This document shows, in pieces, positions 1 through 59,229 of a stretch of DNA of 64,000 nt. The first letter of the stretch is position 1; each line of letters begins with the position of its first letter. The position numbers and the translations under genes were made by a program. The DNA comes from Cricetomys ansorgei (Eukaryota; Chordata; Mammalia; Rodentia; Nesomyidae), in NCBI GenBank assembly GCA_026225945.1, contig JAMJFZ010002594.1:2356001-2420000 (forward strand), written 5' to 3'. Below the pieces are notes generated by a model. That model saw only the letters and a list, made by a program, of their open reading frames with translations. It was not told the origin of the DNA and made no database searches.

Positions 1-21994
<21,994 letters not shown>

Positions 21995-28542: not shown

Positions 28543-28548
28543 TTTATT
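28543..28548 (-). terminator. Tfip11: Tfip11 poly(A) signal AATAAA
   Basis: The minus strand reads AATAAA only 22 nt after the Tfip11 TAG (28571-28573), so the 3'UTR should be about 40-55 nt. The plus-strand signal of Srrd lies within 30 bp, and the two transcript ends should abut or overlap. Confidence 0.85.
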
Positions 28549-28570: not shown

Positions 28571-31500
28571 CTACTTGGCCATGTCGATGAGGCTCTGCAG
28601 GGAGGTGGGCACCCATGTCTTCTCACCCTGCACAAACACCACACCCCGGTCGATGTAGATGACAATGCGGCCGAAGGTGTAAAGCTGCTTGCCCTCGTGC
28701 CGCTTGCCAATGACGGGCATGAACACGATGTTGTGCTCCTCTGCCTTGGTCTCGATGAGGTCCTTGAAGTTCATGGGCACTGAGCTGGCGGCCGCCCCGA
28801 TGCCCCGCTGCGCCATGTTCTCAGCTTCCCGGCGCTCCTGCATGGCCTCATACTGGAAGTCCTTCCTGCGCTCCGTGTGCGTGAGGTAGGCAATGTTCTC
28901 CCTCGCACCTGGCTGCATGTAGGCCCCTGAAAGAAGGAAAGACAGTGAGGAGAGGTGACCCCAGGTATGCAGAACCTAACGTGCATGATGACATGGTGCA
29001 TGACTCACTGAGGAGCCTGTGCCTGAGGACACAGGCACTGACATCATCAGTGCAGGCCTGGGGAGGCTCATTATCACAAAACTGGTCTGGAGACTTGAGG
29101 CTAATATCAAATACCAGAGTTAGACCTGTCAGTGTCAGATGAGGTATAGACAAGGCCAGAGTGCACAGAGGTAGCTCTCTAAATCACCACCCATGAGGTC
29201 ACCGCATAGTCTAGTGTGGCCTACACTTCTCCTTTCCCCTGGTGCACAGAGGCCCTGCCATCCAAGGATGGGAACGAGCTAGAGAGAAAACTCATCCACT
29301 AGGAGGATGACTCTGTTTGCAGAGTCCACTGTGGTTCCCAGCACCCACTTGAGATGGCCCACATCTACCTCACCAGGCTCCGCCTCCCCTGGCACTGCAC
29401 TCCTGTGTAACATCTCCCTCCAGACACATAAGCACATAATTAAAAGCCATAAAGATAAATGTCAGGTGTATTTAAGGATCCCGAGTGTGGCTCCTTGAAG
29501 AACCAGAGTAACCCAAACGCTGTGCTGTGAGGGGTACGGGAACAATCCTGACCGTGGTCTGGGGTGATAAGGTGGGTGGGTTAGAGGACAGCACCCCATC
29601 CCAGCCGCCGCCCGTGTGTCTGAGCTCTGAGCTCTCCAGGAGCTGAGACAGCTCGGAGAGGTCCCAGCAGTGCTGTGCATCAAGCTAAGTGCACCTTTAG
29701 CATGTTTGCTTCTGCTGTGAACACCTTCAATGTACTCAGTGCTCAGTGCCGTGACTTGCATAACAGGGCAAGCCTGGGCCTCAGCAGTGAGCAGTGATCC
29801 CCAGGGACCCAGATGCCATGCCACAGACACAGCTCATCCCTCTTGTAACCATGAAGTAGGCACAGAGCATCACAGGGGGAGCAACTACCAAGTGCTACAC
29901 CCACACAGGAGTATGGGAAGGCTGCCTAGAGCCAGACCCAGTCGGCCTCTGTCAGGACTAACTCGGTGGGAGTTAAAAGTAGCTGAGCCCACTGGACACT
30001 GTCCTGGGAGTGAAGTGACACTTGGGTGGCCTTGCAGAGGACCCCAAAATAGGAGTCAGTGTCATGCTTGGGAACCAGGGCCAGGACATCCCAACAGGAA
30101 CCTTACTCACCCACATTGGAGGACACAGCCCTGTTCATGATGTCAAGTGCTTCGTTGAACTTTTCCTTGACGGACGGGTGTGCCAGCACCTGGTCTGAGA
30201 ACATGGATTTCCAGCCCAGGTACCACTTGGTGATCTCCTCATAATTGGGGCTGTTACTGAGCCAGGAGCACAGCACCTGCCACAGGACACAGGACGCTGT
30301 AGAGGGGCTGGACCACAGCAGCATGAGCAGTGTCCCAGGGCCATGTGCTGTATTCAGCACTGCTCTCCCAGCAACCCACACTCCGGGGTGCACGGAGCTG
30401 CGGCATCTAATGATTAGCCAGCCCTTGGCCTAATTTCCACATCAGGTCCTATGAGGAACTGAGGACACATCCCGCCTAGACAGCAGTGGGCACTGAGTAC
30501 CCGGGGCTCTCACCCACACCCCACCTTGTCCCTCCTGGACCACAGTATACCTGAAGCCACTTGGGGAAGAAATGCTTCTCCAGCAGCCCCACCAGGCTGG
30601 AGACAGAGATCATCCCTTCCCAGTCCATCACCCAGTAGAAGGCATCCATATGCTGCTGGTGGGGGTTGATGACGAGCTCACCCAAGCACATGCCTGCAAG
30701 AGAGATGGTCCCCAGCTCAGCTTCTGCAGCAGCAGAGCCATGGAGGCACACAGTGCTACCCAGCAGACCCTTCAGGCTCTGGCCTGCTCCTTCCTTCACC
30801 CAGGCTGAGCTCCCTGTGGTTCACAAGTATTTAAGAGGAAGATGCCTTTCTGGTCCTGAAGCCCAAACAAGCCCCATCAGGAAACCATAGGCACAGAGAG
30901 CGGAGTCACTGCAGACCGCGGTCACAGCTGTGAAGCAGCAGCAGGCAGGCTCTGGTTCCACTCCCGTGCCAGCTCTGCCCTGTGCAGTGCACCTTCTGTG
31001 GACACGACTGGGCTGCACTTGGGCACCTGCCCAGCTCCTTACCCAGCTTGGGCACGATGTTCCTGAGCATGAAGGCCTCCCAGGACCCAGGGGTGAGGAC
31101 TTCTTTCCAGGGCTGCAGGATGAGCTTGGCTGAGGCGTCACTGGGGTGCCACTTCTGCAGCGCACTGGACAGCTTGCTGCGGACAGGGGAGTAGAGCGGC
31201 TCCAGGCGGGCCTGCATGAGGGGCAGCCACGGGTGGATCCACGAGTGGATGGGAACGGTGTCTGTCAAGGGGTTCCAGTTATCCACCTGTGGGTGAGTGG
31301 GGAAGGATGGCAATGAAGCCATGTTCGTGCATGACACACCAGTGCTGTCCTCAGGAAAGTGGGTGGGTCCTCACAGAGGGCCACAGTGCACACTGTGTGT
31401 GGAGGGCAAGAGCCACCTGGAGGCAGATGGGAGGCACAGCAGCCAAGTGGCCTCCCAGGCACTCTGCACTCTAGGTCCCTCAGAGGAAAAAACCATGCCA

Positions 31501-34500
31501 GCAGCTCAAACCTCAGCATGGCTCACGGTTCCCCGAAGAACTGAGGCACTAAGGAAATGGACTCCCTCTTGAGAAAGGTGGGGGAGAGGTACTACGGAAA
31601 AGGCTAGAATCAGCACTGCAGGACACCACTGGTGCCAGCCCTGCAGTCCCAGGAGTACAGCGGCACACGCACACTGCAGGGGCCCTGCCCTACCTCCTTC
31701 TGCAGCTTGGGGAAGATGAGCTGGTCCAGGATGTTGTCCAGGATCCACACAGGGATGATGTGTGCCCAGCTGTCCAGAAAGTCCACCATTGGGTCACAGT
31801 TCCTGGGCTGCCACTGGGCGACAACATTCCGAACAAAAGGCATCCAGACCTCCCACATGAGCCTGGAGAGGCAAGGGCACTGGTCAGCCACTGTTGGCTT
31901 CATGCCACCCCGTAGACCCCAGAGGAAATCCTCAGGGCAGTCCCCACAGGGGCCCCGGTGATGTCCCTCCATGGTCCACCAGCTGCTGGCTGCTCCAGGA
32001 CCACGTGGGCTAACGGTGTCAGCGCATGGTACTGGGGGGGTCACAGATGAGCACTCCCTCCTGAGACCCATCCTCTCCCAGCTGCCCCATCTTGGTCCTT
32101 TTTCCCTGCACTGCCTGTTCACTTGTCTGCCACCTGCCGTTTCCAGACTGTGGCTGAAAGCTGCTCAGGATCCTTGCAGGTTCAGCCCAGCTCCTGGACA
32201 CTCAGCAGATGTGTGAGTCGGCCAGCCTTCGACTCCCAAGCAGTCCCAGTGTGGAGCAGAGGCAAGAGGGCCAGAATGGCTTGGGGAAGCAGGGGCACAG
32301 TGGGGGGACCCTGGCACCTGTGGAAGGCATCTGAGGACAGGTCTTGGCTGCTGTGAGATAGCAGCTGGTCGTTCTCCAGGAGGCTCTTCCACTTGGAGAT
32401 GATCTGGGTGCCATAGCTGCCATCCTGCAGAGCACCGGCATAGTGAGCTTTCCCACCTCAGTGACCATGTCCCAGCCTGACCCCGCCCAGCTCTGGCCTG
32501 GCCCTGCCCGCACACCTCGAGGGGGTGCCAGTCCTTGAAGTAGTCCTTCACCAGCGGATAGACGATGGCCACCGCCAGGTCTGCGCGGTCTGCCAGGCGG
32601 TACTCCTCATAGTACTTGTCCTGCAGCGTCTCGAAGATGCGGGCGCACTCGTCCAGCGTGAGGGGGTCAGTGCTGTGGGGCTGCATGCGGCGCTCGCACT
32701 CCTCCACCAGGGCCAGCACTTTGCTGAGGTTGGAGATGACTCGCTCCTCGTGCGCGAGGACCTCGGCGGTCTTCTCGAGCTCGTGGGACAGGTTGACCAC
32801 CATGTCCCGCTCATACTGCAGCTGGCGGTCACTCTGGATGATCTCCTGCTCCGTGCGCTCGATGAGCAGCTGCAGGTTGTGCTCCAGCTCGGGCAGCGCG
32901 AAGCCGGGCACCTTGGCGTCCTTGCCAGCTGTGGGAGGCAGCTGCGCCAGCAACGGCAGCCCTTCATCAGGCACGCTGTGCTTGTGGCTGATCTGGCTGT
33001 AGCTGTAGTAGACCTTCTGCTCCCGGCCCGTCATGTCGATCACCTTGCAGAGGGTGGCAGGATGCCATGTTAGCCACCGCCAGAGGAGACACGATGACAG
33101 CCAAGGGTCAAGAGCCCTGCCGGGGACAGAGCTGCCAGCTCCACATTACCTCACACTCAACAGTGGCAGGCAGCTGCCCCCACTGCTGTCTAGCTACTTG
33201 GGAAGTGATGGCAACAAAGAAGGAAGCCTTCCCGCGATCCCATGGTTGGCTTTGCAGTGCTGGGGGTAGGAGCCGGGGCCTGGCACGTGCTGCACTGGCT
33301 GAGGACTTACACCAGGAGTGGTGCTGAGTTCATGGGGCATGACTCCAGACAGAAGGGAGCACTGTGTCTTGAGAAGCAGTGCTGCACTGGAACCCAGTGT
33401 CAGGAGGTGGGGAGGGAGGGCTGTGCATTTGAGGCCAGCCTGGGCTACATGGTAAGATTCTGTCTCGGAAAGGAAATAGGGACACACACACCCCAATGAC
33501 CTAGTTATCAGACAGACAGATCTCGGAGAAAGAGGGCCTCATACCTTGACCTGAGACAGCTCCTTCTGAGGCGCTGTGAGCTTCTTGCTGACCCTGCCCT
33601 TGGCCTTCAGCTCCTCCACGGTCTTGTAAGAGTACTTTGGCTTCTTCTTGCTCCCACTGGGATCCTTCCTCCACTGGCTCAACTCCTTCTGAAACTCCTA
33701 GGGCAGAGGGATGCAGAGAAATGCCAACAGAAGGCCTCTTCCACAGCAGTCAGGGGCCAAGGCCCATAACATGCCTGCAGTCACCAAGTATCATTCCCCA
33801 GCACCCCTGAGCAGCACAGGCAGGGCGATGCTAAAGGCGGGTGCTGGAGGGAAGAGAGAGGCTCTGCTGGTCTTCAGCTGACCTCATGCAGAACTCAGCA
33901 TGAACACTGGCCCCACCTGGCCGGACAATGAGCAGAGGGGAAATGAGGGAGGACACAGCTGTCTCCAAGCTGAGCAGTCTACGATGCAGTTAGACTACCG
34001 TGCAACTGTGTACCTCGGTCCCACCCTGTCCACAACCTTACAGCTGACCGCCTCACACACACCTGATGCCAGTGGCTGCAAACTGGGCCCCCAGCAGGCC
34101 TGTCACACAAGCAGCTGTGTGTTGACACCCAAAGGCCACCAGAGCGACAACCCGTGAACCAGCCGTCTGAAGCATCCAGGCCACAGGCCACCCACGCCTG
34201 CTTCTCATTACCTCCTCAGCCTCCTCTTCTGAGTCGGCCACGGGGAAGTCCTGCAGGGACTGGGTGGTCCGCTCCGAGCCGTAGGCCCCCACGGCCCCCT
34301 TGCCTTTTCTCTGTTTGGCTTCAATGGGGTTGATGATACCTGAACAAGGACAGGTGGGAGACCATCCAGATGTGGGCACACACTCGAGGACAGCACCAAG
34401 AGGCCGCCTCCTGCTCCTCACCCCGACAGCACACCACTACTCAGCACAGTGCCACGGCCCTGGACTCGACGAGCGAGGCCGCGTCTGAGGCAGGCATTCA

Positions 34501-37500
34501 GAAGCCCATGTGGCAAGCACAGAAACTCGGTAACTCAGGACACTGACTGGCGGAAGGACAGCTGTGGGCTGGTAAGGGCTCACACTGCCTGCACTTAACT
34601 TGTGTAACATGGCTAAGCCCTGGAAATGAACAGGAACCCAGCATTTTCATGAGGATTCCTGGCCCTCCCCAGGCTGTCTTCCCCTCTCCCACGCTGTGGA
34701 ACCTCAAGATGCTCTGCCATTCTCTTCCTGCCATGCTGTACACTGGCCAACCTGGTGCCCAGCTGCTGAGAGAACAGAAGCCACAGAAGCAGGGGCTACG
34801 GAGCTGAGCCTTCAGGGCCCAGGCAACCGCACAGAAGTGATCACAACATGGCAGGTGACAGGCCACAGAGTTGGGGGCTCAACTTTTAGAAGACCACACG
34901 CAGCCCCAGAGCAGCTGTAAAGCAGCCAGACTACTGCTGGGCACAATCTAGAGTTGTAGGGGGAACAGTCTGACTTTAAAATATTAGCAGTTATTTCTCC
35001 AGAAACACAGGCCAGGCCAAACCAGACAGGTGTCTGCAGCCACCTCAGACCTTAAGACTGTCCTTCCCCCATAAGCAAGTATGGTATTGAGCTAGGTTCT
35101 GAGAGATCAGAGTAGTGAGGAGCACACGTGGCCATGCTACCAAACTCAACTGCAGAGCAAACAGCCATTTTTGATTGGTTCTGTACATCCCTCCCAGGAC
35201 CTGTGCAGCTACTAAGGAGATTACCCACGTAGGAAGGGCTTCTGAGGAAAGAGGCAAGTGAGATGCATGATCCCATAGGTACCCCACACCCCACCACCCT
35301 CTGGGCCACAGCCTCACCTTGGGCATTCTTCCCCAGGCCCCTCCCAGGGACGTAGCCCATCTTCTGCAGCAGCTTCTGTCCAATCCCTTTTGTGTGTCTC
35401 TCCCAGCTGCCAAAGTCCATGAAGGACTTGGTTCCTCCTGCAAAGCCTTTCTGGCTGGGCTTAAAATTGCCACCCTGCAAAGAAGGCAAGACAAGCTTCC
35501 GTGAGAAAAAAAGAACAACAAAAAACAAGAGAAAACAGCCTACAGCTACAGTGCATCATGAAGAGCAGCGTGTGGATCAAAATCACTCCACTGCACAGAC
35601 CAGGAGAGAGGCTGCAGGACCCACATAGGTGCTCCCTGGGCTTCTCCCTGTCAAAGAAGCCTCTGCATGGGTGACCTCAAAGGGGCGCCACTCAGGGATG
35701 ATCCTGCAGGACCTACTGTTTTTAACTTCTTTGGTCCTAAATCCTTTGGAAATTCTTCCTGTTTAACAGGCTTCTCCTCCTCATCAGAGTCCTCAGAGTC
35801 CGCTTCCTCAGCCGCTCCTTTCTTGAGTCCTGCACTGATGAAGTTGACAGGTGCAGAATAGTCTCGGGCCCTGCAAAAAGACACAAATCTCCCAAGTTTG
35901 TAAAGAATACCTCTCTGCACTCTCTGTCCTAGAAACTGCTCACAGGAGAATTCCTCAGGAGAGGGCCCTCAAGGTGATGCAGAAGTTTAGTTTTAGTTAT
36001 GTTTAAAATGGTTGCTTTGTGCACCGTTGGGTGAGGGGCTGCCGAGGCCTTGCAGTTTTGTATTGTCTGCAGGTGTTGGCTTTGCGTAAGCAATGTTTGA
36101 CTGCTAATGATCAGCCACCTGTTCACTGCTTGCTGGCAGAGCTAGTATCAGTAGAACACCCGAGGAGCTTAGGTATCAATAAAAATCCGGGAGGCTCAGG
36201 GTGCCACTGTTCAGGATGACCCGTGCCAGGACAGTGGTTCCCTCTGCTGAGGTCTGGCAGGGTTCGCACCTATGAAAATGCCTCCCTGTCTTCCTTGCTG
36301 AACCACCACAGATTAACTGCTACATCATGGAGTCTACTTTAAAGCAGTAATATGTCTATTTACATCCAAACGCCAAAAGACACTCAAACCTGGCCTCCAG
36401 GAATCTTATGTTTAACACTTAACAATATTATGTTTATGTGTGGTTATTCACAAGACGGTGTGCGCGCCCAGAGAGCCAAAAGCAGAGATCCCCTGAAACT
36501 GGAGCTACAGGCAGTTTGTGGGCTGTCTGATGTGGGTGCTGGGACCCAGACTCAGGTCTGCAAGAGCAGTATTGATCTTAGCTGCTGAGTCGTTTGCAGC
36601 CCACATTTAGCATCTGCGGGGTATGCTCACTTCAGTCTGAAGCCAGAGCCTTGTCAATGGAGCTGATTATAAACTCAAAATATGACATCATAATCTTACT
36701 TCCATTTGAAATTTAAAAAAACGTTATTATGGTTATATGTACAATGGGGGAGAGCAGCACATGTACCTCATCAAGCATGTGGAGGTCAGAGGTCAACTTG
36801 GTGGAGTCAGTACTTCCCTTTCACCTTCTTTGTGGGATCTGGGGATTCAACTCAGCTGGCCAGGCTTGTACAGTAAAGAGCTTCACCTGCTTAGCCTTGC
36901 CTTTAGAGTGGGGTAGAACACTTGCCTAGCCCTGGGTCTAATTCCCAGCAAAACACACAGACACACACACACACAAACAGGGCACTTGTTTTAGATACTC
37001 CTTCAAGTGTAAAAATCAAGCAAGAACAAAAAAATTCAGATAGATAAAAACCCCGAGATAGTCAAGTGCAGGGGCACATGCTCTTTTCTTGTCCTGAGAT
37101 GGCTACGTAGCCCAGGCTGTACTAACACTTTTCCCGGGGACCTAATGATGCTCTTCCTTCATTTCAGCTATGGAGCCTTCTCCAGAGTCAGGCCTGCCCT
37201 GACCTCCCTATCCCGTGAGTGCTCCTTGACCAGGTCATGGTTACAAAGCTGCCTGTCTGTGGTTGATCAGTTCTCTGTCGGTAAGTAGCTGAGCAGGAAC
37301 CTGCCACCCCAGCTCAAACACACACAGCAAGACACTATGGCTACAGGACTCAAGGGGAGGAGAAAACCCTGCAGGGGGCTGTCTCCCTGATCCTCTAGAG
37401 CCAGGGAATGCGGCCCAGCAGATAGTACCGTTTGCCTCCAAAGCTGGGCCTCTCCTCATCCGAGTCGCGCTCAGCCCACACTCCGTAGGTGGCCTCCTCC

Positions 37501-37640
37501 TTGGTCTGCCAGTGGCGCTGCCGGTTGGGGTTGAACTCATTCTGGAGATCCCAGTCAGTGATTCCAAAGTTCTCTCGCTCATCATCATCATCATCATCCA
37601 GGTGGCCTTCTCCATCCCGATACAAGTGGGACAGCGACAT
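28571..37640 (-). CDS. Tfip11: TFIP11, tuftelin-interacting protein 11 (G-patch spliceosome disassembly factor)
   Basis: TFIP11 (yeast Ntr1/Spp382 relative) activates the DHX15 helicase to release the intron lariat and dismantle the post-splicing spliceosome in the nucleus. Twelve coding exons in transcript order: 37429-37640, 35717-35870, 35318-35474, 34212-34339, 33545-33697, 32516-33043, 32318-32424, 31694-31862, 31043-31286, 30551-30693, 30111-30276, 28571-28926. Phases join to 838 codons, the length I recall for mouse. Domains: acidic N-terminus [12 protein letters not shown] with an Asp run; G-patch at ~150-196 ([20 protein letters not shown]); a Lys-rich stretch at ~220-265; a central coiled region at ~300-420; and the GCFC-type C-terminal domain, ending [10 protein letters not shown]. 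The ATG is 9 nt inside its exon (acceptor GCTCTAG), so a non-coding first exon lies upstream, most likely in the CpG island at 41 kb. The acceptor at 33044-33045 is AAG rather than CAG or TAG. Confidence 0.98.
35983..36330 (+). mobile_element. LTR-like dispersed element, copy 3
   Basis: GTTATGTTTAAAATGG, TTGTCTGCAGGTGTTGG, GTATCAATAAA and CTCTGCTGAGGTCTGGCAGG match copies 2 and 4. It begins about 110 bp beyond Tfip11 coding exon 2, in the intron. Confidence 0.75.
36957..36976. repeat. Short (CA)n tract in Tfip11 intron
   Basis: About ten CA units, just downstream of a diverged repeat. Confidence 0.9.
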
Positions 37641-38239
37641 GGCCAGTCTCTAGAGCAAGTGGGACAGGAAGAGCACTGTGAGAACCTGGGGCCAGCAGAA
37701 GGTCGCAGGGCGTCGCTGTTCCTGTCTCCTCCAAACAGAATCCATTAGCCTCGAGCTACTACTCAGTAGAGCAGCCATTAAGCACAGGACGGAGTAACCA
37801 GCTCTGCAACAACGCAACAAGTCAGTCCCAGCAATCACACAGGTCTAGTAACTCACACTGCTGCCTTGGCCTGTCAGAGCCGAGCTCTGTTATTACCTCA
37901 AAAGCCAGGTGGGCACCTTGGCCTTTTTGGTTGGGAAGTGTTATATCTAGCCGCTTTGCAGTCCCGGGAGATTTCCAAACGTCCTCTGAAATAATGTCTC
38001 AGGAGACCGAACGACCGGTGTAGCTCAGGTTTTCCTTCTCAAACCTGAACGGTGTACTGGGAGGCGGCAGTCTCTACACTCTGCAGTCACACCTGGAGGA
38101 TGTGGGGTAAACAAGCTATTCTACCCAGGTATCCACTCAGCTATCTCTACAAACGGCATTCATGACTAGTCAGTTTCAGTAGTTTGTAAGGACTGATCAA
38201 AAGAATGCTTTAGAAAAAACAAACCTCCCGGCACCGGGA

Positions 38240-38530: not shown

Positions 38531-39077
38531 AGAGAAAGCGTCCTCTACTTCAGTCACACGGTCAGGTTCACCGTCATTACCAGTCCTGAGTGAGGAATCC
38601 TTGGGAATGACTGAAAATCAGGGACATTTAACACCACGGTCTGAGTTCAAACCCCACCTCTACCAGCGCTCCACATACAAAGCCCCCAGCACGGTGCACT
38701 GCACAGTAACGTCTTCAGTTCGTGATGCCATCGTGTTCAGGGGAACCACTGACTGACAGCGGAACCACTGACTGACAGCTCTGGACTTCCTCTGTGAGGG
38801 TGAAACTGCTGGGCTGTTAGGAATGCCTGTCTGCTGCTCCTCACCCTGCACCGGCCGACCTCCCCAGGTTCCAACCTCAGCTACGAGTGCACCCTGAGTG
38901 CAGAGTTCTCACGGCGGCAGGGAAGCTGGACCCACGGATTCCAGCACCGTGGCGTCCCCAGCGCAGGGGTGGGGAAAGCTCACAGAGGTCAGGAGACACA
39001 ACACGCTCACCGGGCTGGTTACTAAGTGTGAGCACCGGGACGCCGCAGACCCAGCGCCTCACAGGTCCCCGCATAGA

Positions 39078-40925
39078 TCCTCACCCGGGTCCCCTCACCT
39101 GGGTCCCCCCGTCTGTCCTCACCCGGGTCCCCTCACCTGGGTCCCCCCGTCTGTCCTCACCCGGGTCCCCCCCCCCCCCGTCTGTCCTCACCCGGGTCCC
39201 CCCGTCTGTCCTCACCCGGGTCCCCTCCTCTGTCCTCACCCGGGTCCCTCTCTGTCCTCACCCGGGTCCCCCCGTCTGTCCTCACCCGGGTCCCCCCCCC
39301 GTCTGTCCTCACCCGGGTCCCCCCGTCTGTCCTCACCCAGGTCCCCTCCTCTGTCCTCACCCGGGTCCCCCCGTCTGTCCTCACCCGGGTCCCCTCCTCT
39401 GTCCTCACCCGGGTCCCTCTCTGTCCTCACCCGGGTCCCCCCGTCTGTCCTCACCCGGGTCCCCCCGTCTGTCCTCACCCGGGTCCCCTCCTCTGTCCTC
39501 ACCCGGGTCCCCTCCTCTGTCCTCACCCGGGTCCCCCCCGTCTGTCCTCACCCGGGTCCCCCCGTCTGTCCTCACCCGGGTCCCCTCCTCTGTCCTCACC
39601 CGGGTCCCTCTCTGTCCTCACCCGGGTCCCCCCGTCTGTCCTCACCCGGGTCCCCCCGTCTGTCCTCACCCGGGTCCCCTCCTCTGTCCTCACCCGGGTC
39701 CCCCCGTCTGTCCTCACCCGGGTCCCCTCCTCTGTCCTCACCCGGGTCCCCCCGTCTGTCCTCACCCGGGTCCCCCCGTCTGTCCTCACCCGGGTCCCCT
39801 CCTCTGTCCTCACCCGGGTCCCCCCGTCTGTCCTCACCCGGGTCCCCTCCTCTGTCCTCACCCGGGTCCCTCTCTGTCCTCACCCGGGTCCCCCCGTCTG
39901 TCCTCACCCGGGTCCCCCCGTCTGTCCTCACCCGGGTCCCCTCCTCTGTCCTCACCCGGGTCCCCCCCGTCTGTCCTCACCCGGGTCCCCCCCCCCGTCT
40001 GTCCTCACCCGGGTCCCCGTCTGTCCTCACCCGGGTCCCCCCGTCTGTCCTCACCCGGGTCCCCCGTCTGTCCTCACCCGGGTCCCCCCCCCGTCTGTCC
40101 TCACCCGGGTCCCCCCCCCGTCTGTCCTCACCCGGGTCCCCCCGTCTGTCCTCACCCGGGTCCCCCCGTCTGTCCTCACCCGGGTCCCCCCGTCTGTCCT
40201 CACCCGGGTCCCCCCGTCTGTCCTCACCCGGGTCCCCCCGTCTCCTCACCCGGGTCCTCCCTCTGTCCTCACCCGGGTCCCCCCTCTGTCCTCACCCGGG
40301 TCCCCCCTCTGTCCTCACCCGGGTCCCCCCGTCTGTCCTCACCCGGGTCCCCCCGTCTGTCCTCACCCGGGTCCCCCCGTCTGTCCTCACCCGGGTCCCC
40401 CCGTCTCCTCACCCGGGTCCTCCCTCTGTCCTCACCCGGGTCCCCCCTCTGTCCTCACCCGGGTCCCCCGTCTGTCCTCACCCGGGTCCCCCGTCTGTCC
40501 TCACCCGGGTCCCCTCCTCTGTCCTCACCCGGGTCCCCCCGTCTGTCCTCACCCGGGTCCCCTCCTCTGTCCTCACCCGGGTCCCTCTCTGTCCTCACCC
40601 GGGTCCCCCCGTCTGTCCTCACCCGGGTCCCCCCGTCTGTCCTCACCCGGGTCCCCTCCTCTGTCCTCACCCGGGTCCCCCCGTCTGTCCTCACCCGGGT
40701 CCCCCCGTCTGTCCTCACCCGGGTCCCCCCGTCTGTCCTCACCCGGGTCCCCTCCTCTGTCCTCACCCGGGTCCCCCCCGTCTGTCCTCACCCGGGTCCC
40801 CCCCCCCGTCTGTCCTCACCCGGGTCCCCCCCCCCGTCTGTCCTCACCCGGGTCCCCCCCCCGTCTGTCCTCACCCGGGTCCCCCGTCTGTCCTCACCCG
40901 GGTCCCCCGTCTGTCCTCACCCGGG
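39078..40925. repeat. GC-rich minisatellite, ~24-bp unit, 74 perfect cores
   Basis: The unit is CTGTCCTCACCCGGGT plus a C-rich spacer. By hand I count 74 copies of TCACCCGGGT, two TCACCTGGGT copies near the left edge and one TCACCCAGGT near 39345. Three main spacers give 24-bp types (CCCCCCGT or CCCCTCCT) and a 22-bp type (CCCTCT); C runs vary to 12. Blocks with the order 24b-22-24a-24a-24b recur about five times, a sign of higher-order duplication. Because most units are multiples of 3, all frames stay open for long distances, but no true coding is implied. The C runs may be mis-assembled in length. Confidence 0.97.
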
Positions 40926-40929
40926 CCCC

Positions 40930-41000
40930 GCAGCGGGCAGGCCGCACGTCCGGGCGCAGAGGCCGTGGCCGCCGCGGCGAGGCCCCGCCCGCGCTCCCGG

Positions 41001-41032
<32 letters not shown>

Positions 41033-41520
41033 TCACCTCGCTCCACGCCCGCGGTCCACACAGCCTTCGCCCGGCGTCCGAAAGCCTGTCAAGCGCCCGC
41101 CGCCCGGAACCGGGATGTGGCCCTGGTGGCGCGCCGGAAGAACGTCACCCAGCGGCGGAAGTGGCGCGCTGTTGCCCCGGCAGCGGCTTACCGCCAGAGG
41201 GGGGCGGAGCTGCATACCGGAAGAGCTGGTGAGCCGGCCTCGCGCTGGTCCTGCGCCCGCCGGAAGTGACGACACACGGAAGGCTGTCTGGGCCTGGAGG
41301 GCGACTCCGAGAAGGCCGGCCCAGGCCGTGTGCGCCGGGACCCCGTGACCCCAGGAGCTCCCCCTCCGCAGGGCCGCGGCCAGGGATCCGCGCATGCGGC
41401 CCGCGGGCGGGGACGGGCGGAACCCACGCCCTTCCCCCGTCCTAGTGATGGCTGCTCTGCGGTGCAGACCGGGGTGTCTCCGGCCGGTCCCGGTCACGGG
41501 CCGAACCGCCTCGTGTTCCG
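40930..41520. promoter_or_regulatory. Tfip11: CpG-island promoter of Tfip11, with ETS sites
   Basis: This CpG-dense block lies directly upstream of intron 1. It has CGGAAG/CCGGAAGT-type ETS sites at about 41134-41140, 41155-41162, 41217-41223, 41260-41267 and 41276-41283. A candidate first exon on the minus strand ends at 41037 (GGAGCGAG, donor GTGAGC). A plus-strand donor (CTG, then GTGAGC at 41229) hints at a divergent transcript, as often seen at such promoters. The TSS is not determined. Confidence 0.75.
41001..41028. repeat. (GACGCC)n hexanucleotide beside the Tfip11 first-exon donor
   Basis: About 4.5 tandem GACGCC units. On the Tfip11 sense strand they read GGCGTC and start 8-10 nt inside the inferred intron. 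Confidence 0.85.

Positions 41521-51312: not shown

Positions 51313-59229
<7,917 letters not shown>

What the first reader, a model, noticed from the sequence alone, without database searches (positions are those of the whole stretch)
39078..40925. Tfip11 intron 1 carries 74+ repeated 5' splice-site-like sequences on the sense strand
On the minus strand, the direction of Tfip11, each minisatellite core reads ACCCGG|GTGAGGACAG, matching 7 of 9 positions of the 5' splice-site consensus. Two edge units read CAG|GTGAGG, better still. The strand is purine- and G-rich with no pyrimidine tract, so acceptors are absent: the array is a donor-only decoy cluster between the inferred first exon and coding exon 1. 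TFIP11 itself helps dismantle spliceosomes, so U1 capture here could tune its own splicing or suppress premature polyadenylation. The sequence match is seen; the regulatory loop is inference.
Basis: partly seen in the sequence, partly recalled or inferred. Interest (0 to 1): 0.75.

Follow-up and report, generated by a model that had tools for sequence, protein, structure and literature searches.

The report
Donor-like minisatellite in Tfip11 intron 1
A tandem repeat just downstream of the inferred start of the Tfip11 gene repeats a sequence that looks like a splicing donor site about 78 times, but it is most simply an ordinary G-rich minisatellite, and nothing available here shows that the splicing machinery uses it.

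Summary
On the minus strand, window 39,078-40,929 is a roughly 24-bp minisatellite with 78 GGTGAGG cores: 75 CGG|GTGAGG, 2 CAG|GTGAGG, 1 TGG|GTGAGG. Tfip11 is encoded on that strand, and the array lies between an inferred first-exon donor (41,036) and the ATG exon (37,640). By a recalled matrix the motif outscores 10 of 11 Tfip11 coding donors. After a folding penalty its predicted U1 pairing about equals the inferred exon-1 donor. No acceptor-like site was found (0 of 202 AGs).

The regulatory story is not supported. Inferred intron 1 has none of 12 poly(A) hexamers, so suppression of premature polyadenylation has no evident substrate. Published decoy exons bind U2AF at a 3' splice site, which the array lacks. 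A shuffled unit holds an equally good donor in 2.9% of trials, so one seed plus duplication suffices. A minisatellite providing multiple splice donors is in print (title only). Best reading: an ordinary, G-skewed intron-1 minisatellite whose donor-like motif is a by-product; occasional donor use stays possible. No RNA data or second species could be examined.

The parts
39078..40929 (-). GC-rich minisatellite; modal unit GTGAGGACAGACGGGGGGACCCGG (24 bp); 78 GGTGAGG cores; G-rich on the Tfip11 sense strand
39093..39139 (-). the two best donor-like units, CAG|GTGAGG with GT at 39,136 and 39,098, at the acceptor-proximal edge
41031..41039 (-). inferred exon-1 donor GAG|GTGAGC (GT at 41,036), 116 bp upstream of the first array donor-like site (40,920)
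   Evidence: sequence inference, no RNA evidence
41000..41499 (-). CpG-island promoter region (GC 0.74-0.76, CpG obs/exp 0.86-1.10 in two 250-bp windows)
   Evidence: start site inferred
37428..37640 (-). Tfip11 coding exon with ATG, TIP_N domain (Pfam PF12457); candidate acceptors upstream at 37,650, 37,686 and 38,093
28574..37640 (-). Tfip11 coding region, 12 tblastn pieces; G-patch and GCFC domains

Best explanation
An ordinary GC-rich minisatellite that expanded by tandem duplication of multi-unit blocks at the CpG-island end of Tfip11 intron 1. Its unit happens to carry a fairly good donor sequence in the transcribed orientation, and duplication copied it. If it affects the gene, the likelier routes are physical: G-rich RNA and a displaced G-rich strand favouring R-loops or G-quadruplexes just after the start site. 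Shown: the array, its strand, its G skew, the donor match. Inferred: the first exon, transcription through it, R-loop formation, absence of a selected splicing role.
For: Unit order suggests block duplication: two 7-unit runs (EFFGEFE, FEFFGEF) each occur twice, and 43 of 2,000 order shuffles reach a repeated run that long. Lengths of the 77 complete units are 14-31 bp, with variation mostly in the G run and the bases beside it. A donor this good arises in 2.9% of dinucleotide-shuffled units. Sense-strand G skew is +0.44 to +0.46 in the two 1-kb bins of the array (sign reversed). 17 hits of a home-made QmRLFS-like rule lie in the array on the sense strand and 0 on the other; 36 G-run quartets with loops up to 12 nt on the sense strand, 0 antisense; 41% of 25-nt windows reach G4Hunter 1.2 on the sense strand, against 2% elsewhere. 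No acceptor-like sites; no poly(A) hexamers in inferred intron 1.
Against: The donor score is unusually good: above 10 of 11 coding donors, while four other tandem units that I chose from the 35 TRF rows reach at most 6.0 on either strand. Predicted U1 pairing net of unfolding (-7.0 to -7.5 kcal/mol) about equals the inferred exon-1 donor (-7.2 to -8.0). Strict G4 motifs (loops 1-7) number only 1, and the R-loop rule fires 20 more times elsewhere on the minus strand, 14 of them in the 53-kb repeat. No copy-number polymorphism, R-loop or G4 was measured.
Confidence: 0.73

Rival explanations
1. Array units serve as real alternative first-exon donors. The acceptor-proximal CAG|GTGAGG units would give a 5' UTR extended by about 1.9 kb and variable in length, as the title of a paper on a human interferon-induced transcript suggests is possible.
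For: Two units score 11.31, above the inferred exon-1 donor at 10.19. They sit nearest the acceptor, the site favoured when several donors are U1-bound (recalled). The only ATG in 39,060-40,945 is at 39,074, beyond both. Precedent title seen.
Against: No RNA evidence. Array sites are predicted to be harder to open: median 3.7-4.2 kcal/mol of 78, and 4.7-5.4 at the two CAG units, against 1.7-2.6 at exon 1 and a median of 2.7-3.6 for 11 other strong donor-like sites of the gene. A very long first exon is unfavourable (recalled).
Confidence: 0.12
2. Donor-only decoy cluster that titrates U1 and tunes Tfip11 splicing in a feedback loop.
For: Many sites with plausible U1 pairing.
Against: No acceptor-like site, whereas published decoy exons have 3' splice sites bound by U2AF. 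No evidence of a loop. One pre-mRNA cannot plausibly deplete U1, which is abundant (recalled).
Confidence: 0.05
3. U1 telescripting: the donors protect intron 1 from premature cleavage and polyadenylation.
For: Dense donor-like sites near the 5' end fit the general idea.
Against: 0 of 12 signal hexamers in the 3,386 nt of inferred intron 1; in the following 9,090 nt of the gene only 10 hits to weak variants and no AATAAA/ATTAAA. Part of the lack is composition: the array has almost no T.
Confidence: 0.03
4. The G runs act as an intronic splicing enhancer (hnRNP H/F) for the exon-1 donor.
For: G 54.5%, with a run of 5 or more G in 52 of 77 complete units (counted), starting about 116 bp after the inferred donor.
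Against: Known effects are local, and most of the array lies far beyond that range (recalled). Not tested.
Confidence: 0.07

Closest known systems
[quoted passage not shown]
   Same: A tandem repeat whose units carry a donor sequence in the transcribed strand.
   Different: There, by its title, the donors are provided to a transcript (title seen in the reference list of PMC2572611; paper not held). The exon-boundary position and 12-bp unit are recalled. Here use is unproven and the unit is 24 bp in an inferred 5' UTR intron.
Decoy exons of retained introns (OGT, SF3B1, ARGLU1; passages of PMC12017769)
   Same: Splice sites inside an intron that are recognised but rarely used are proposed to affect its removal.
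   Different: Decoy exons have 3' splice sites bound by U2AF; this array has no acceptor-like site.
G-skewed CpG-island 5' ends that form R-loops (Ginno 2012 and 2013, seen only as references)
   Same: G-rich non-template strand directly downstream of a CpG-island promoter.
   Different: Here the skew comes from a minisatellite of about 1.85 kb; R-loop formation was not measured.

Membership tests
Minisatellite / VNTR | Head-to-tail units of 10-100 bp in many copies | tested here: met
   24 bp, 75.0 copies, 91% matches
Minisatellite / VNTR | Copy-number polymorphism between individuals | not testable with these tools
   One assembly only; unit order suggests past block duplication
Donor-providing minisatellite (IFI6 type) | Units carry a donor sequence on the transcribed strand | tested here: met
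   77 of 78 units score 8.98 or more by a recalled matrix
Donor-providing minisatellite (IFI6 type) | Spliced transcripts use the units | not testable with these tools
   No RNA data held
Decoy exon | 3' splice site able to bind U2AF | tested here: not met
   0 of 202 AGs have a pyrimidine tract by the simple rule
U1 telescripting element | Cryptic poly(A) signals in the intron to be suppressed | tested here: not met
   0 hits of 12 hexamers in 3,386 nt
R-loop-prone G-skewed promoter end | G skew on the non-template strand downstream of a CpG-island start | tested here: met
   the start site is inferred
R-loop-prone G-skewed promoter end | RNA:DNA hybrid present in cells | not testable with these tools
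   Needs DRIP-seq or similar

The most novel reading that the evidence does not exclude
The minisatellite supplies working alternative donors for Tfip11 exon 1. The two acceptor-proximal CAG|GTGAGG units would add about 1.9 kb of 5' UTR with no upstream AUG in the added stretch, whose length varies with repeat copy number, so that a splicing factor's own expression would differ between individuals through a VNTR.
Probability: 0.1. Interest if true: 0.55.

Novelty: new member of a known kind. Interest (0 to 1): 0.22.

Why it matters
If the units are used or bind U1, this would be a clean natural test of how U1 chooses among dozens of near-identical donors, in a gene for a spliceosome factor. 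As it stands, it illustrates how a repeat unit can carry a splice-site match that duplication multiplies without any need for selection.

Tried and rejected
Telescripting was rejected for lack of poly(A) hexamers. Structural occlusion of the donors was tested as a reason to dismiss them; it only evens them with exon 1, so it was not used as a refutation. Coding potential over 38,900-41,100: the longest stop-free run in each sense frame is 110-126 codons, and on the plus strand 674, 733 and 733 codons because that strand is C-rich; none of these six longest runs has a methionine. Rfam: 0 matches at gathering score in the window. Searches for a 20-base piece of the unit: 0 in viral contigs and 0 in genome contigs, collections of viruses and of bacteria and archaea, so uninformative about related mammals. 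Literature, in the held open-licence library only: TFIP11 with minisatellite gave 0 papers; minisatellite, splice site and U1 snRNP gave 3, none on point by title; TFIP11, splicing and exon 1 gave 15, judged by listing only; listings were seen and none of those papers opened except PMC6027298; passages of PMC11506328 that mention splice donor sites were about transposons. The full text of no paper was read. Comparison with mouse, rat and hamster could not be made, and the species was not determined; a rodent is inferred from B1-like repeats recognised by recall.

Full report
Gene and place. tblastn with a recalled human TFIP11 protein gives twelve matching pieces on the minus strand, from 37,640 to 28,574. 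Independent support comes from Pfam TIP_N (9e-17), G-patch (2.3e-10) and GCFC (2.5e-10) on three of four translated exons tested (the fourth gave no family), and from PDB chain 8ro2_TF, Tuftelin-interacting protein 11 (4.9e-93). Tpst2 lies upstream on the same strand (recalled probe, three pieces at 59,136-53,791; Sulfotransfer_3 domain). The array is thus upstream of the ATG exon and begins 116 bp downstream of a good donor, GAG|GTGAGC at 41,036, next to a CpG island. That this donor ends the first exon is inference from sequence.

The array. TRF reports a 24-bp period with 75.0 copies at 39,122-40,929, higher-scoring rows at 48 and 72 bp, and irregular edge units from 39,078. Splitting at the core gives 78 units: 75 CGG|GTGAGG, 2 CAG|GTGAGG, 1 TGG|GTGAGG. 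Of the 77 complete unit lengths, 46 are 24 bp and the rest 14-31 bp, with the variation mostly in the G run and the bases beside it. Block duplication is suggested: two seven-unit runs each occur twice, and 43 of 2,000 order shuffles reach that length.

Donor quality. With a matrix recalled from memory, the modal unit scores 8.98, the two CAG units 11.31 and the inferred exon-1 donor 10.19. The 11 coding donors, read from the exon boundaries, score 1.23, 4.35, 11.14, 6.32, 7.87, 7.21 and 3.48 and 7.82, 7.48, 4.57 and 8.56 (the last four picked by me from the listed GT sites as the ones that fit the protein). The modal unit therefore exceeds 10 of 11. Duplex energy with the unmodified U1 5' end is -11.2 kcal/mol for the modal unit and -9.7 for exon 1. 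The local opening cost is 3.7-4.2 (median of 78, two window settings) against 1.7-2.6 for exon 1 and a median of 2.7-3.6 for 11 other strong donor-like sites; among the seven coding donors folded, six need 1.2-3.9 and one 5.5-6.4. Net values for array and exon 1 are about equal. The model leaves out proteins.

Is it more than chance? Copies are not independent, so the unit is the right object. 1.0% of mono- and 2.9% of dinucleotide shuffles of the 24-mer contain an equal or better donor on the given strand. Four other tandem units that I chose from the window reach at most 6.0 on either strand. The donor is therefore mildly unusual for such a unit, but it was noticed after the fact and needs no selection.

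Functional claims. The premature-polyadenylation role fails on substrate: none of 12 signal hexamers occurs in the 3,386 nt of inferred intron 1, and the first AATAAA/ATTAAA found downstream of 41,100 is at 28,548, just past the coding end. The decoy role lacks the 3' splice site that published decoy exons have. For the autoregulatory loop there is no evidence. In the passages of PMC8599867 that I read, TFIP11 is the homologue of yeast Ntr1 and in human cells acts in U6 2'-O-methylation and tri-snRNP assembly independently of DHX15.

What it may do. The sense strand carries G skew of about +0.45 across the array (sign reversed), 17 hits of an R-loop rule that I wrote after QmRLFS from memory (0 on the other strand inside the array; 20 elsewhere on the minus strand and 4 on the plus strand), and 36 G-run quartets with loops up to 12 nt, though only 1 under the strict loop limit of 7. 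A physical effect on early elongation is therefore the likelier influence if there is one, but it is unmeasured. Use of units as alternative donors remains open: a minisatellite that provides multiple splice donors is in print (title seen in the reference list of PMC2572611; the paper itself is not held).

Verdict. A correct and well-described sequence observation; an ordinary minisatellite as the best reading; the proposed feedback function unsupported, and two of its parts (polyadenylation suppression, decoy) disfavoured by sequence.

Noticed in passing
38900-41100, + strand: The C-rich strand across the array is free of stop codons in two frames for 733 codons (674 in the third), without methionine: a composition effect.
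   Followed up: yes
52182-52789: A second minisatellite, 29-bp unit, 20.8 copies, downstream of the matched Tpst2 pieces on the minus strand.
   Followed up: no
53209-53710: CATC-type repeat of about 500 bp next to the last matched Tpst2 piece; on the minus strand it gives 14 hits of the R-loop rule.
   Followed up: no
15212-16594, + strand: A 461-codon open frame matching Pfam DUF4515 (1.2e-65). It was one of 10 frames scanned out of 200 stop-to-stop frames of 90 or more codons.
   Followed up: no
37428, - strand: The donor of the first coding exon is weak by the recalled matrix (ACG|GTACTA, 1.23), the lowest of the 11 coding donors.
   Followed up: no
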